From a virus, in the IMG/VR virus record IMGVR_UViG_3300020469_000021, positions 40,957-104,956 of that record: a DNA stretch of 64,000 bases. One strand, given 5' to 3'. A program made the translations under genes and the position numbers. Under the pieces are notes generated by a model. The model ran no database searches, was not told the DNA's origin, and saw nothing but the letters and a program-made list of their open reading frames with translations. This document shows positions 32,576 through 40,547 of this stretch, piece by piece. Each line of letters opens with the position of its first letter. Position 1 is the first letter of the stretch.

Positions 32576-32790
32576 TGATTGATCCCGACGAGTGGATGGA
32601 GGAAGCAATAGGTGCAAGTGATCCTTTTAATTCATTATTATATAAACTTAATCAAATAAAAAATCAGATGAAACAAGAGTTGGGCAGAGAGCCTACCGCA
32701 GAAGAAATTTCTTCTGAAACAAAAATTGAAATTGGAGTAATAACAAAACTACTTCCTATCGTAAAAAAGAGAAAACTTCACGAACAATAA
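32575..32790 (+). CDS. Orphan sigma-70 region 3-like mini-protein
   Basis: 71 residues. Residues 33-63 (KQELGREPTAEEISSETKI...VITKLLPIVKK) match the first helices of sigma-70 region 3, whose consensus reads ELGREPT.EEIA......V..LL.....; regions 2 and 4 are absent. In a full sigma factor this domain contacts the extended -10 element and RNA polymerase. A free copy could compete with or modify a host sigma factor, or work with a separate phage subunit. It is the third gene of a coupled operon. Confidence 0.65.
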   Translation: MIDPDEWMEEAIGASDPFNSLLYKLNQIKNQMKQELGREPTAEEISSETKIEIGVITKLLPIVKKRKLHEQ

Positions 32791-32798
32791 AATTGTAC

Positions 32799-32827
32799 TT
32801 GACAAATATCAAATATTGTAGTATGAT
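32799..32827 (+). promoter_or_regulatory. Strong promoter of the large non-coding RNA
   Basis: TTGACA, 17 bp, TATGAT: the best sigma-70 match in the region, with no start codon behind it. Transcription should begin near 32834. Confidence 0.8.
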
Positions 32828-32833
32828 ATATAA

Positions 32834-33530
32834 ATAATCAAAATTGAGAACCAAACTCAAATAAATAAAATAAATCGATCTTTAACATTTTAATTTTCCA
32901 AGAGGCAGGACAAGCAATGGAGTTGAAAAACCTTAAATGGTTAGTAAGAAAATTGCTGGAGAGCCTTTAGAAGGACTGAAGTTACCTATAGAGCTTAAGT
33001 AGTTACTGAAGAAAATTTTTTCACTTTTATTTTCCTAGCTACTACTTCGTATGAAGTAAGTTTCGCAAAAGGAGTTACTGACGAAATTCACTCTTGGAAA
33101 ACACTTTGGAAGGGCTTATAATCCTTCCTGTGGGTGACTGAACTAATCCTGTCGTGAGCGGGATAAAGTATGCAAATTCCCTGTGGTAGGGTAGGTAGAG
33201 TCCAATCGGATGAGCTTAGTACGATTCCAAGTATAGTTTGTAGTTCGAAGTAGGTAATCCTGAACTGATGTTCACGCCGAAAAGTTGGAGGTATACAGTA
33301 GTCCTCCCCCACACCTATTTGTTTCATATTATTATTCCTGTTTGTGGTAAAGGTTGTATTTGGACTGAAACGTTTGAATAACCTTCTTTGCGAAGGGGTA
33401 CTAAAGGGTATTGTAGCGGATTTCGTAGTCTGGTTATTTCATCGCCCTTCCCGTAACTACATAAAAGCGTGGAACACTTTCCCACTCCTCCGACCCTCAC
33501 CTGCTTTTTTTTGCAGGTGGGGGTTTTTTT
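32834..33530 (+). ncRNA. Large structured non-coding RNA (about 700 nt)
   Basis: A 700-nt stretch without a credible gene, bounded by a near-consensus promoter and a perfect intrinsic terminator. It is GC-richer than the surrounding coding DNA and full of local hairpins: GGAAGG/CCTTCC (near 33110), ATCCTG/CGGGAT, CCCT/AGGG, GGAGG/CCTCC (near 33290-33308), CCTTC/GAAGG (near 33390) and CTTC/GAAG around 33050. Size, phage context and structure density resemble the giant ornate RNAs GOLLD and ROOL found in phages, but I cannot align it to either. Overlapping minus-strand ORFs have no start signals and are taken as shadows. Confidence 0.7.
33493..33530 (+). terminator. Intrinsic terminator of the large RNA
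   Basis: A 12-bp stem (33493-33504 with 33513-33524, one G-U pair), a T8 loop and a T7 tract. Confidence 0.9.
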
Positions 33531-33534
33531 GTTG

Positions 33535-33563
33535 TTGACTTTGTGAGTTATTCTGTCAGTATA
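33535..33563 (+). promoter_or_regulatory. CTGTC-class promoter
   Basis: TTGACT, 17 bp ending in CTGTC, AGTATA, then 5 nt to the ATG at 33569. Directly follows the terminator. Confidence 0.65.
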
Positions 33564-33568
33564 TAGGT

Positions 33569-33823
33569 ATGAATACATTAAAAGAAATTATAGATTGTTG
33601 GGGGTTTGTTAATTCTATTCAACTTAAAGAGTTGGCTCAGTATTTTCCAAACACTCCATTAGTTATTAAATGGGGTATGCGTCAGAGGGAGATCTGCCAA
33701 GCTTGCGATGTTGCTGATCGCATCGAAAAGGTAGAGTCTGAGTCAGACGACTATGTTCGTGAAGTTTTCATTCAAGTAGACAACTTCCGCCAATTAAAAT
33801 CAGTACTAGGAGTAGAGGAATAA
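33569..33823 (+). CDS. Hypothetical protein
   Basis: 84 residues, alpha/beta (LVIKWGMRQREICQACDVADRIEKVESES). Virtually leaderless. Shares its stop with the next ATG. Confidence 0.6.
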   Translation: MNTLKEIIDCWGFVNSIQLKELAQYFPNTPLVIKWGMRQREICQACDVADRIEKVESESDDYVREVFIQVDNFRQLKSVLGVEE

Positions 33824-34423: not shown

Positions 34424-34444
34424 AGTTTTTTTAAAAAAAAAGTG

Positions 34445-34473
34445 TTGACTTAACCCAAGAATCTGTCAAACTA
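34445..34473 (+). promoter_or_regulatory. Leaderless CTGTC-class promoter with dyad
   Basis: TTGACT, N13, TGTCAA inverted repeat. The -10 position (AAACTA) is followed by exactly 6 nt and the ATG at 34480. Confidence 0.6.
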
Positions 34474-34479
34474 ATAATT

Positions 34480-34662
34480 ATGAAGATTGAACAAGACAGC
34501 GAATACCATCTCTCACTTGCCATTGAGCAAGTGATGATGAAACTACAAAGCCTTGGAGCTACCAACGAAGATAGTCCTTTTGGAGAAACATTTGCCACGC
34601 TTGCCGTGCTATTAATGAAAGTTAGAGAAGAGGAGGAACAAAATGAAAATGCAGATGCTTAG
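34480..34662 (+). CDS. Hypothetical protein
   Basis: 60 residues, helical, acidic C-terminus. First gene of an eight-gene run (34480-36142). Overlaps the next by 20 nt. Confidence 0.55.
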   Translation: MKIEQDSEYHLSLAIEQVMMKLQSLGATNEDSPFGETFATLAVLLMKVREEEEQNENADA

Positions 34663-36978: not shown

Positions 36979-37144
36979 CTTAACTGAACAAGAATTAAAG
37001 GCAGTCTTTGATGTGGTTAATGTTTACGAACCCGAAGACATAAGGCATGTCTACCCCGCAATGGCGACTGATGAATTCATGAAAGATATAAACTCTGCAT
37101 GGAGAAAGATTTTAAACTCTCTTGACAATACCAACAACAACTGA
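36971..37144 (+). CDS. Hypothetical protein
   Basis: 57 residues from ATG 36971, overlapping the previous stop by 8 nt. MDNLTEQELKAVFDVVNVYE is a helical start. Ends in the next promoter. Confidence 0.5.
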   Translation: MDNLTEQELKAVFDVVNVYEPEDIRHVYPAMATDEFMKDINSAWRKILNSLDNTNNN

Positions 37145-37150
37145 GAAAAT
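37122..37150 (+). promoter_or_regulatory. Leaderless promoter
   Basis: TTGACA, 17 bp, GAAAAT, exactly 6 nt (ACTATT), ATG at 37157. The -35 is inside the preceding gene. Confidence 0.65.
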
Positions 37151-37156
37151 ACTATT

Positions 37157-37471
37157 ATGCACGAAAAAATAGAGCAACCCGTAAATTCCTACACCGAATT
37201 CGAGAAGCTTCAATGGGCTTGTGATAAGCCAATGCCATCGATTGGCTCAGAAGTTAATGTCAAGATCAATGGTATTGGTCGATCAAAAGTCTTAAAGTAT
37301 TTTGTGGAGTATGGCTTCATTGGAATGCTTGTTCAGCCTTTCGACCCACCCGCTTGGTATATAAAGCAAAACGGGGCAGATGAGCCTTGTCATGTTTTTC
37401 CTGCTGAGACTGAAGAGCTTAGGGTTGAGAAAAAAGGCTTTTACGAATCTATTCACAACGCAATGGCGTAA
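37157..37471 (+). CDS. Hypothetical protein
   Basis: 104 residues, beta-rich (GSEVNVKINGIGRSKVLKYFVEYGFIGMLVQ). Typical of small phage SH3-like proteins ending in 'fP.e...'. Its TAA is inside repeat copy 3. Confidence 0.6.
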   Translation: MHEKIEQPVNSYTEFEKLQWACDKPMPSIGSEVNVKINGIGRSKVLKYFVEYGFIGMLVQPFDPPAWYIKQNGADEPCHVFPAETEELRVEKKGFYESIHNAMA

Positions 37472-37995: not shown

Positions 37996-37998
37996 TCC

Positions 37999-38027
37999 TT
38001 GACAATCAACAAAAAAACTGAGAGAAT
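37999..38027 (+). promoter_or_regulatory. Leaderless promoter of the DUF932-like gene
   Basis: TTGACA, 17 bp, GAGAAT, exactly 6 nt (ATAATC), ATG at 38034. Confidence 0.65.
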
Positions 38028-38033
38028 ATAATC

Positions 38034-38963
38034 ATGTCAGAAACAAAAAACAGAATTAACCTCGCCATCTGCGGAGGCGAGCATAAGGTAGTAACGCTAG
38101 GGGAAGTCGCTGATGTAGTGACTCCCGATATCGAGTATCGCAAAGAGGCGAACAAGGACGGAACGCACTCCGTTTCTTATCAGCCTATTTCGCACAATCT
38201 CTTGATTGACAAGACTCGTAACCATCTTGAGCAAGGTGGGTTTGAAGTTGTAGACGAGTGCCACAACCTCGCAAGAGGTGGCAAACGCTACTTTGGATTG
38301 TTTGAGGTCACTCACCCAAACAGGGAAAACACCGAGAGAGGCACAATCGTTGGCTTGCGTAATGCTCACGACAAGTGCTTTCCTGCGGGATTGTGTGCAG
38401 GTGATGCTCCATTTGTTTGCGACAACCTCATCTTTACCAATTCGGTCAAGTTGGCTCGCAGACACACTAAGAACATCCTTTCCGAGCTAGATCATGTGAT
38501 CTCTCGCACTTTGGGCAAGTTGTTCAATTTTTGGATGGGTCAAGATCAACGCATCGTATCCTACAAGGATTTTGATTTGACTAACGCTCAAGTCAACGAT
38601 CTTGTGATTCGTGCGTACAAAGCAGGTGCAGTCAGCAAGACTAAGATTGCTGATGTGGTTGACCAATGGGAAAAGTCTGATCACACCGAGTTTTGGGACA
38701 GAAACATGAACTCCCTTTACAATGCCTTTACCGAGGTATACAAGGGCAATCTTGTTGCCTTGCCTCAACGCTCTGAGGCATTGCACTCTGTTCTTGACTC
38801 TGAGGTCGGGTTCGATCTTTCAGCTTTCGATCCTCAAGTCGAGGAAGCTGAACTTGTCGAAGTTGCTCATGCCCCTGCCCCTCAAGTTCTTGAGGTAGCA
38901 GGTAACATAGATGGCGAAGTTCCTGCCGATCTATATGATGCAGAGGATGACTACCCTTTCTAA
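38034..38963 (+). CDS. DUF932-like protein with SSB-like C-terminus
   Basis: 309 residues. GLRNAHDKCFPAGLCAGDAPFVCDNLIFTNSVKLARRHTKNIL (about 106-148) is the core signature of the DUF932/DUF945 phage-plasmid family, whose role is unknown but often near replication genes. The last residues, YDAEDDYPF, mimic the acidic -DDxPF tip of single-strand-binding proteins. Codon use is visibly GC-richer than in the 1-33 kb region, as for most of this cassette area. Leaderless promoter; ends at an intrinsic terminator. Confidence 0.75.
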   Translation: MSETKNRINLAICGGEHKVVTLGEVADVVTPDIEYRKEANKDGTHSVSYQPISHNLLIDKTRNHLEQGGFEVVDECHNLARGGKRYFGLFEVTHPNRENTERGTIVGLRNAHDKCFPAGLCAGDAPFVCDNLIFTNSVKLARRHTKNILSELDHVISRTLGKLFNFWMGQDQRIVSYKDFDLTNAQVNDLVIRAYKAGAVSKTKIADVVDQWEKSDHTEFWDRNMNSLYNAFTEVYKGNLVALPQRSEALHSVLDSEVGFDLSAFDPQVEEAELVEVAHAPAPQVLEVAGNIDGEVPADLYDAEDDYPF

Positions 38964-39968: not shown

Positions 39969-40406
39969 ATGATTATTAACTACGACATACCAAACTACAT
40001 TTCAGATTATCAAGCCGATGCCCCAAAGAGTAGACTCAAGGGGTTTGATGATTTAGTTTTCGAGCCTCATTTAGGATTTGCCGATGGCAAGGCTATTCAA
40101 GCCATACTTGATTTTGGTTCGAGGAATCAATTCACCATATCAGTCGTGCAAAACACTAAAGACAACATTGGATTGTATGGCAACCCTTCGGATAACACTT
40201 ACGAAGTCGCAATGTGGTATGATGGCAGAGAAACCATGCTTCCTTTGTCTGTTGGTGATGATGTTCTTGCATGGCAAACTCCCGTTCAGATCACTAAGCT
40301 AATGCATCAAGCACATCTTAACGATTTTGCTTGGGTCACCCTTCTTCATAACATTAGACAAGACTACAACAAAGAATTAGGTCTTGACAACTTAGACCAA
40401 TACTGA
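39969..40406 (+). CDS. Hypothetical protein
   Basis: 145 residues. SDYQADAPKSRLKGFDDLVFEPH and YGNPSDNTYEVAMWYDG...LPLSVGDDVLAWQTP suggest a beta-rich domain; seen-like proteins occur in other phages but without known function. The next promoter overlaps its end. Confidence 0.6.
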   Translation: MIINYDIPNYISDYQADAPKSRLKGFDDLVFEPHLGFADGKAIQAILDFGSRNQFTISVVQNTKDNIGLYGNPSDNTYEVAMWYDGRETMLPLSVGDDVLAWQTPVQITKLMHQAHLNDFAWVTLLHNIRQDYNKELGLDNLDQY

Positions 40407-40412
40407 GAGAAT
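40384..40412 (+). promoter_or_regulatory. Leaderless promoter
   Basis: TTGACA, 17 bp, GAGAAT, exactly 6 nt (ACTATC), ATG at 40419. Confidence 0.65.
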
Positions 40413-40418
40413 ACTATC

Positions 40419-40547
40419 ATGACAGATCGAAACCAACAACTCACGGGCAACGCTTTGCTCATTTACTTAATGTCTCGCTTTAACATGACAAAGCCAGAAG
40501 CTCTCAACTCAATGAGAAGAGCAGGGCACAACACGGACAACCTATAA
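40419..40547 (+). CDS. Hypothetical 42-aa protein
   Basis: 42 residues (MTDRNQQLTGNALLIYLMSR...), helical with a 'TKPEALNSMRRAG' second helix. Leaderless; followed 2 nt later by the DUF7249-like gene. Confidence 0.5.
   Translation: MTDRNQQLTGNALLIYLMSRFNMTKPEALNSMRRAGHNTDNL

What the first reader, a model, noticed from the sequence alone, without database searches (positions are those of the whole stretch)
32799..33530. A 700-nt structured RNA gene with its own strong promoter and terminator
The unit has the best promoter in the area, no start codon, many hairpins, and a 12-bp terminator. Long non-coding RNAs of this size in phages belong to very few classes (GOLLD, ROOL and relatives form large multimeric RNA cages), and their function is unknown. 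It may be a divergent member or a new class.
Basis: partly seen in the sequence, partly recalled or inferred. Interest (0 to 1): 0.8.

Follow-up and report, generated by a model that had tools for sequence, protein, structure and literature searches.

The report
Free-standing manA RNA gene in phages
The 700-base stretch is a real non-coding RNA gene of a marine phage: it belongs to the manA RNA family, long filed as a gene switch, but here it is a self-contained gene with its own start and stop signals, swappable add-on modules and a second, undescribed RNA domain.

Summary
In detail: window 32799-33530 is an untranslated transcription unit (promoter TTGACA-17-TATGAT, 13-bp terminator). It is not GOLLD or ROOL. 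Its core (33108-33317) is an Rfam manA RNA (RF01745; 76.3 bits, cut-off 55.2). 39 of 50 related phage records carry exactly one manA copy, and 49 aligned cores show strong covariation. manA is filed as a cis-regulatory riboswitch candidate, but here it looks like an RNA gene. Among about 58 distinct loci, 52 have a sigma70-like promoter, 45 a boxA-like leader element and 47 a terminator (3.8 expected by chance); the terminators share no sequence and do not co-vary with the core. Downstream genes differ between phages. Cultured cyanophages also carry manA behind its own promoter, in unrelated places. Hairpin modules are inserted between boxA and the core; the window has a 205-nt one that its nearest relative lacks. 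The 3' part is a second conserved pseudoknotted RNA ("RNA-B"; covariation 0/500 shuffles) with no Rfam match. Best reading: a host-transcribed, trans-acting, modular phage ncRNA of the manA family. Molecular target unknown; palindromic P1 loops hint at dimers. New variant of a known kind.

The parts
32799..32827 (+). sigma70-like promoter TTGACA-17-TATGAT; predicted start near 32834
   Evidence: 52 of 59 distinct homologous loci have one upstream, spacer 17 in 50 of them
32844..32860 (+). leader hairpin TTGAG-AACCAAA-CTCAA (boxB-like position)
   Evidence: same hairpin upstream of the boxA-like site in 42 of 59 loci; in about 14-17 long-loop relatives the loop pairs with sequence just 5' of boxA and co-varies (0 of 5000 permutations); the window's loop does not
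32876..32891 (+). boxA-like element CGATCTTTAACATTTT
   Evidence: 45 of 57 loci match E. coli boxA at >=10/12 versus 1.9% of shuffles; sole copy in the window
32892..33101 (+). window-specific ~205-nt 5' module closed by stem TTTTCCAAGAG/CTCTTGGAAAA
   Evidence: clean insertion against the closest relative L187; z -2.13; no homologue in the fetched loci
33108..33317 (+). manA RNA core (Rfam RF01745)
   Evidence: 76.3 bits, E 1e-17; 49-sequence covariation
33108..33128 (+). P1 hairpin GGAAGGG-CUUAUAA-UCCUUCC with palindromic loop hexamer UUAUAA
   Evidence: relatives exchange UUAUAA, UUGCAA, UAGCUA, UGAUCA, or carry a GACG tetraloop
33407..33471 (+). RNA-B: second conserved RNA domain (H-type pseudoknot plus inserted hairpin), not in Rfam
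33492..33531 (+). intrinsic terminator, 13 bp, 8-nt loop, T-run
33569..33823 (+). next gene, 84 aa, unknown function; conserved neighbour in 33 of 55 loci, different gene in the rest

Best explanation
The unit is a free-standing ncRNA gene of about 697 nt, a long, modular member of the manA RNA family. Shown by sequence: promoter, leader hairpin, boxA-like element, optional hairpin modules, conserved 210-nt manA core, here a second conserved domain (RNA-B), then a terminator. Inferred: host RNA polymerase makes it, probably early; the boxA-like leader recruits NusB/S10 so that this long untranslated RNA escapes Rho and folds properly, as in rRNA leaders; the finished RNA acts in trans as a folded particle on host or phage machinery rather than switching the next gene. 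The core is the common working part, and the peripheral modules adapt it to phage or host. Its molecular target is not identified.
For: Family: 76.3 bits; one copy in 39 of 50 related records. Structure: 98.3% of cells paired, 196 double-change cells versus 53 shuffled, 0/500. Autonomy: promoters, terminators in 47 of 58 versus 3.8 by chance, stems all different. No manA-terminator switch: own complementarity 14.85 versus 15.08 permuted. Downstream gene varies. In 11 cultured cyanophages manA lies in different places (before talC, purL, gp32, a Nol-like gene; after gp23 or pstS) with its own promoter upstream; 15 of 21 cyanophage-type metagenomic loci have the promoter. Leader; boxA consensus GYTCTTTAANA from PMC5725501. 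Modules.
Against: No expression data. 33 of 55 loci keep the same 84-aa neighbour, and in many cyanophages an ORF starts shortly after manA, so cis effects remain possible there. The window's boxA is one base off the published gamma-proteobacterial consensus and the host is unknown. Cyanophage-type manA lacks the boxA leader. No function or partner is known.
Confidence: 0.72

Rival explanations
1. Cis-regulatory riboswitch or leader: manA senses a metabolite and controls read-through into, or translation of, the next gene (the Rfam/Weinberg 2010 filing).
For: Weinberg 2010 lists manA as a riboswitch candidate in 5' UTRs; the 84-aa gene follows in 33 of 55 loci; in most cyanophage-type contigs an ORF starts shortly after manA; a terminator lies in between.
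Against: Terminators are sequence-unrelated and show no covariation with the core; TTGACA-type promoters recur between manA and the next ORF (25 of 55); downstream genes are unrelated between phages; usually one copy per genome.
Confidence: 0.18
2. A divergent GOLLD/ROOL-type cage RNA.
For: Similar length, phage origin, conserved core plus variable 5' part; palindromic loops that co-vary as palindromes, the kind of signature reported for OLE and GOLLD dimer contacts (PMC12286853).
Against: No GOLLD/ROOL match at E<=10; strong manA match instead; no nearby tRNA island, the only tRNA is about 29 kb away.
Confidence: 0.04
3. Protein-coding region or gene remnant misread as RNA.
For: Minus-strand ORFs of 79 and 84 aa overlap it.
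Against: Minus-strand frames are open in only a few of 49 homologues, none is open on the plus strand, lengths are mixed modulo 3; compensatory base changes in both domains.
Confidence: 0.01
4. Decoy for host NusB/S10: the boxA leader itself is the active part and titrates rRNA antitermination factors.
For: boxA-like element in 45 of 57 loci, kept even where the hairpin is absent.
Against: One boxA per transcript, while the most invariant part is the manA core; cyanophage-type manA has no such leader.
Confidence: 0.05

Closest known systems
manA RNA motif, Rfam RF01745 (Weinberg et al. 2010, PMC2864571)
   Same: Core matches over all 192 model positions, 76.3 bits; same helices with covariation; phage distribution.
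   Different: Family filed as a cis-regulatory riboswitch candidate; here a terminated unit with boxA-like leader, inserted modules and RNA-B. These phages score 45-93 bits against 169-187 for the cyanophage type.
GOLLD / ROOL / OLE large ornate RNAs (PMC12286853)
   Same: Large phage or prophage ncRNA, conserved part plus variable part, palindrome-exchanging loop suggesting homodimer contacts.
   Different: No sequence or covariance match; core only 210 nt; no tRNA island; multimerisation untested.
rrn leader boxB-boxA antitermination element (PMC5725501, PMC10250234)
   Same: Order promoter - hairpin - boxA - structured untranslated RNA; GTTCTTTAATA of several relatives fits GYTCTTTAANA exactly.
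   Different: Phage-borne, in front of manA; in many relatives the hairpin loop forms a covarying pseudoknot with sequence 5' of boxA; window boxA has one mismatch.
S-CREM1 wcaG-manA-abiF cluster (PMC9964418)
   Same: Phage genome with manA among other RNA elements.
   Different: Annotated there as cis-regulatory by Rfam label only; transcript autonomy was not examined in the passages read.

Membership tests
manA RNA (RF01745) | Covariance-model score above the gathering cut-off over the full model | tested here: met
   76.3 versus 55.2 bits, positions 1-192
manA RNA (RF01745) | Conserved secondary structure with compensatory changes | tested here: met
   49 sequences, 19 of 35 pairs with double changes, 0/500 shuffles on covariation score
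manA RNA (RF01745) | Located in the 5' UTR of a metabolic or photosynthetic gene (putative cis-regulation) | tested here: not met
   Terminator lies between manA and an 84-aa gene of unknown function; terminators in 47 of 58 loci. This is a proposed function, not a structural criterion of the family.
Terminator-controlled riboswitch | Aptamer and terminator arm form mutually exclusive, co-varying pairs | tested here: not met
   own 14.85 versus permuted 15.08, p 0.85, 47 loci
GOLLD / ROOL | Match to the Rfam covariance models | tested here: not met
   no match at E<=10 in 32700-33600
GOLLD / ROOL | Homomultimeric RNA cage | not testable with these tools
   only an indirect hint: palindromic P1 loops
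rrn-type boxA leader | boxA match GYTCTTTAANA downstream of a hairpin | tested here: inconclusive
   window GATCTTTAACA has 1 mismatch; several relatives match exactly; 45 of 57 loci at >=10/12 to E. coli boxA versus 1.9% of shuffles
rrn-type boxA leader | NusB/S10 binding and Rho resistance | not testable with these tools
   needs binding and transcription assays

The most novel reading that the evidence does not exclude
manA RNAs as a whole are not riboswitches but a widespread class of autonomous, trans-acting, modular phage ncRNAs that form kissing-loop homodimers, are made through an rRNA-like boxA leader (with a new pseudoknotted variant) and can fuse with a second undescribed phage RNA domain, RNA-B.
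Probability: 0.4. Interest if true: 0.82.

Novelty: new variant of a known kind. Interest (0 to 1): 0.67.

Why it matters
manA has stood since 2010 as an orphan riboswitch candidate. If its members are autonomous ncRNA genes, the search for a metabolite ligand is misdirected and the right experiment is to find the RNA's partners during infection. The cultured cyanophages that carry manA behind its own promoter (P-SSM2, P-HM2, S-TIM4 and others) make this directly testable. RNA-B and the pseudoknotted boxA leader are additional, covariation-supported RNA elements without an Rfam entry.

Tried and rejected
GOLLD/ROOL/OLE membership: no match. DNA homologues in cultured phages by blastn with the whole unit: none. 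Folding energy as evidence: not significant for the whole RNA, so replaced by covariation. Terminator/antiterminator switch: negative. Coding: negative. tRNA-island context: no tRNA next to manA in the loci scanned by ARAGORN; L231 looked tRNA-adjacent by eye but ARAGORN did not call one. Host from the single MAG hit (L235, Rickettsiales MED606): that genome has no 16S to read a boxA from, so the host stays unknown. Homologue of the 205-nt module: none in the fetched loci. Published transcriptomes of the manA-bearing cyanophages were not found in the library.

Full report
OBSERVATION. The unit 32799-33530 is real. A TTGACA-17-TATGAT promoter stands at 32799-32827 and a 13-bp intrinsic terminator at 33492-33525. 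No credible ORF lies between them on the + strand. The stretch 32791-33568 is the second longest ORF-free gap of the window. Folding energy alone is unimpressive (z -1.46), so structure was tested by comparison.

IDENTITY. Rfam finds one RNA here: manA, RF01745, at 33108-33317, 76.3 bits against a cut-off of 55.2. Nothing matches GOLLD, ROOL or OLE. The window is part of a 104,956-bp uncultured virus record, and that record holds a single manA. Relatives were collected through rIIB and the phrog_586 protein. 39 of 50 related records carry exactly one manA (36 over the cut-off), and 8 more came from a wider set. The closest cultured relatives are remote: the rIIB protein is at most about 34% identical and the terminase about 26%.

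CORE STRUCTURE. 49 distinct cores of the window's type were aligned and folded. 98.3% of cells pair, against 87.5% in shuffles; 196 cells carry double changes against 53; the covariation score is 0.408 against 0.194, with 0 of 500 shuffles reaching it. Sliding the partners destroys it. The closing helix UGUGGG/CCCACA is nearly invariant. No + frame is open in any of the 49 cores and lengths are mixed modulo 3.

A FREE-STANDING GENE. Upstream of manA, 52 of 59 distinct loci carry a sigma70-like promoter, 50 of them with a 17-nt spacer (in four of the 52 the best-scoring site picked by the script lies further upstream than the leader). Downstream, 47 of 58 carry a strong intrinsic terminator within 220 nt, against 3.8 expected; the stems are all different in sequence. 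If manA were a switch acting through that terminator, the core and the terminator arm should be complementary and co-vary. They are not: own score 14.85, permuted 15.08. The next gene is the 84-aa family in 33 of 55 loci (32 in the cluster plus the window), but phrog_586, another small family or singletons in the rest, and in 25 of 55 a promoter-like site lies between manA and that gene. In the eleven cultured cyanophages examined, manA sits before talC, purL, gp32 or a Nol-like gene, or after gp23 or pstS, with a TTGACA/TATAAT-type promoter reaching the first hairpin (read by eye). In several of them the -35 box lies in the loop of a terminator-like hairpin (GGAGGGgTTGACAcCCTCCTTTTTTT). A consensus scan of 21 cyanophage-type metagenomic loci finds the promoter in 15.

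LEADER. Between promoter and core most relatives have a hairpin TTGAG..CTCAA and then GATCTTTAACATTTT or GTTCTTTAATA. E. coli boxA is matched at 10-11 of 12 in 45 of 57 loci, against 1.9% of shuffles. The published gamma-proteobacterial consensus is GYTCTTTAANA (PMC5725501). The order promoter-hairpin-boxA is that of rRNA leaders. In relatives with longer hairpin loops, the loop pairs with sequence just before boxA, and the pairs change together (GAGGC/GCCTC, GGAT/ATCC, GGGC/GCCC, GGGGT/ACCCC, AGCT/AGCT and others; 0 of 5000 permutations). The window has the hairpin but not this pseudoknot. That the element binds NusB/S10 is inference.

MODULES. The boxA-to-manA spacer is 12-14 nt in 22 of 52 loci; in most of the others it holds one or two hairpin-closed inserts of up to about 219 nt (a few of the longest values reflect an upstream boxA-like match chosen by the script). 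The inserts are stable for their composition (mean z -2.8, 19 of 30 below -2), and some are shared between otherwise different loci. The window differs from its closest relative L187 by one clean 205-nt insertion at this point, closed by TTTTCCAAGAG/CTCTTGGAAAA. No homologue was found in the fetched loci.

RNA-B. The part between core and terminator contains 33407-33471, a second conserved element. In 24 sequences three helices (UGUGG/CCACA, an inserted hairpin, and a hairpin whose loop takes part in the first helix) are 97.4% paired against 74.3% in shuffles, with 99 double-change cells against 29 and 0 of 500 shuffles on the score. Rfam has no match. It occurs once in 16 of 50 related records and once in the window's record, in most cases away from manA (150-240 nt after rIIB, or in other phages shortly after a ~193-aa ORF). 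It is fused to the manA unit in the window, L187 and, in divergent form, L209 and L235. It is absent from the cyanophage records tested.

P1 LOOP. Across 181 distinct P1 hairpins the loop is either a GACG tetraloop or, in the second class, one base plus a palindromic hexamer: UGAUCA, UUAUAA (window), UUGCAA or UAGCUA. Exchange between palindromes is the evidence used for symmetric kissing loops in OLE and GOLLD (PMC12286853). Only four palindromes were seen, so this is suggestive.

HOW IT WORKS. Shown: an autonomous, conserved, structured transcription unit of the manA family with a modular periphery. Inferred: transcription by host RNA polymerase; protection and folding aided by boxA; action in trans, possibly as a dimer. 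Not known: target, timing, host. Confidence that it is a manA-family RNA gene is about 0.95; that it acts in trans rather than in cis about 0.72.

NOVELTY. The family is known; the autonomous organisation, leader, modules and RNA-B are not described in the literature read here. The library searched is partial.

Noticed in passing
window 33407-33471; L036, L037, L039, L048-L050, L055, L058, L063, L065, L103, L130, L254, L276-L303: RNA-B, a compact pseudoknotted RNA motif in viral contigs with strong covariation and no Rfam entry; often shortly after a ~193-aa ORF or after rIIB, i.e. 3'-UTR-like.
   Followed up: partly
window 34350, 36187, 37462, 39030, 40771, 42015, 43173, 43609, 44801, 45644: Ten copies of a ~67-75-nt palindromic element (GTAAGTCRTTGA..ATCAG..CGCTCTGGGCGGCG..TTGAT..TCAANGACTTAC) every 0.4-1.8 kb; similar ones in relatives (e.g. 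L258). Function unknown.
   Followed up: partly
leaders of L181, L182, L184, L186, L192, L203, L207, L216 and others: Covarying pseudoknot between the boxB-like hairpin loop and sequence just 5' of a boxA-like site: a possible new antitermination element.
   Followed up: partly
window 34434-34484, 37121-37169, 37998-38046, 40383-40431 and others: Recurrent promoter-like boxes (TTGACA..TGAGAGAATACTATNATG; TTGAC..CTGTCANACTA..ATG) just before start codons, suggesting many genes have their own promoter.
   Followed up: no
L014 10941-11374 (-): ARAGORN calls a tmRNA with an unusual 31-aa tag; may be false.
   Followed up: no
L261, just 3' of the manA core: A second copy of the leader hairpin with pseudoknot-like complement (TTGAGAAGGGGAACTCAAGAGAATAAAATACCTCAG) follows the manA core.
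   Followed up: no
cultured cyanophages P-TIM68, P-RSM6, S-TIM4, P-TIM40, P-HM1, MED4-213 upstream of manA: The manA promoter's -35 box lies in the loop of a terminator-like hairpin: a combined terminator-promoter that insulates manA from the gene before it.
   Followed up: partly
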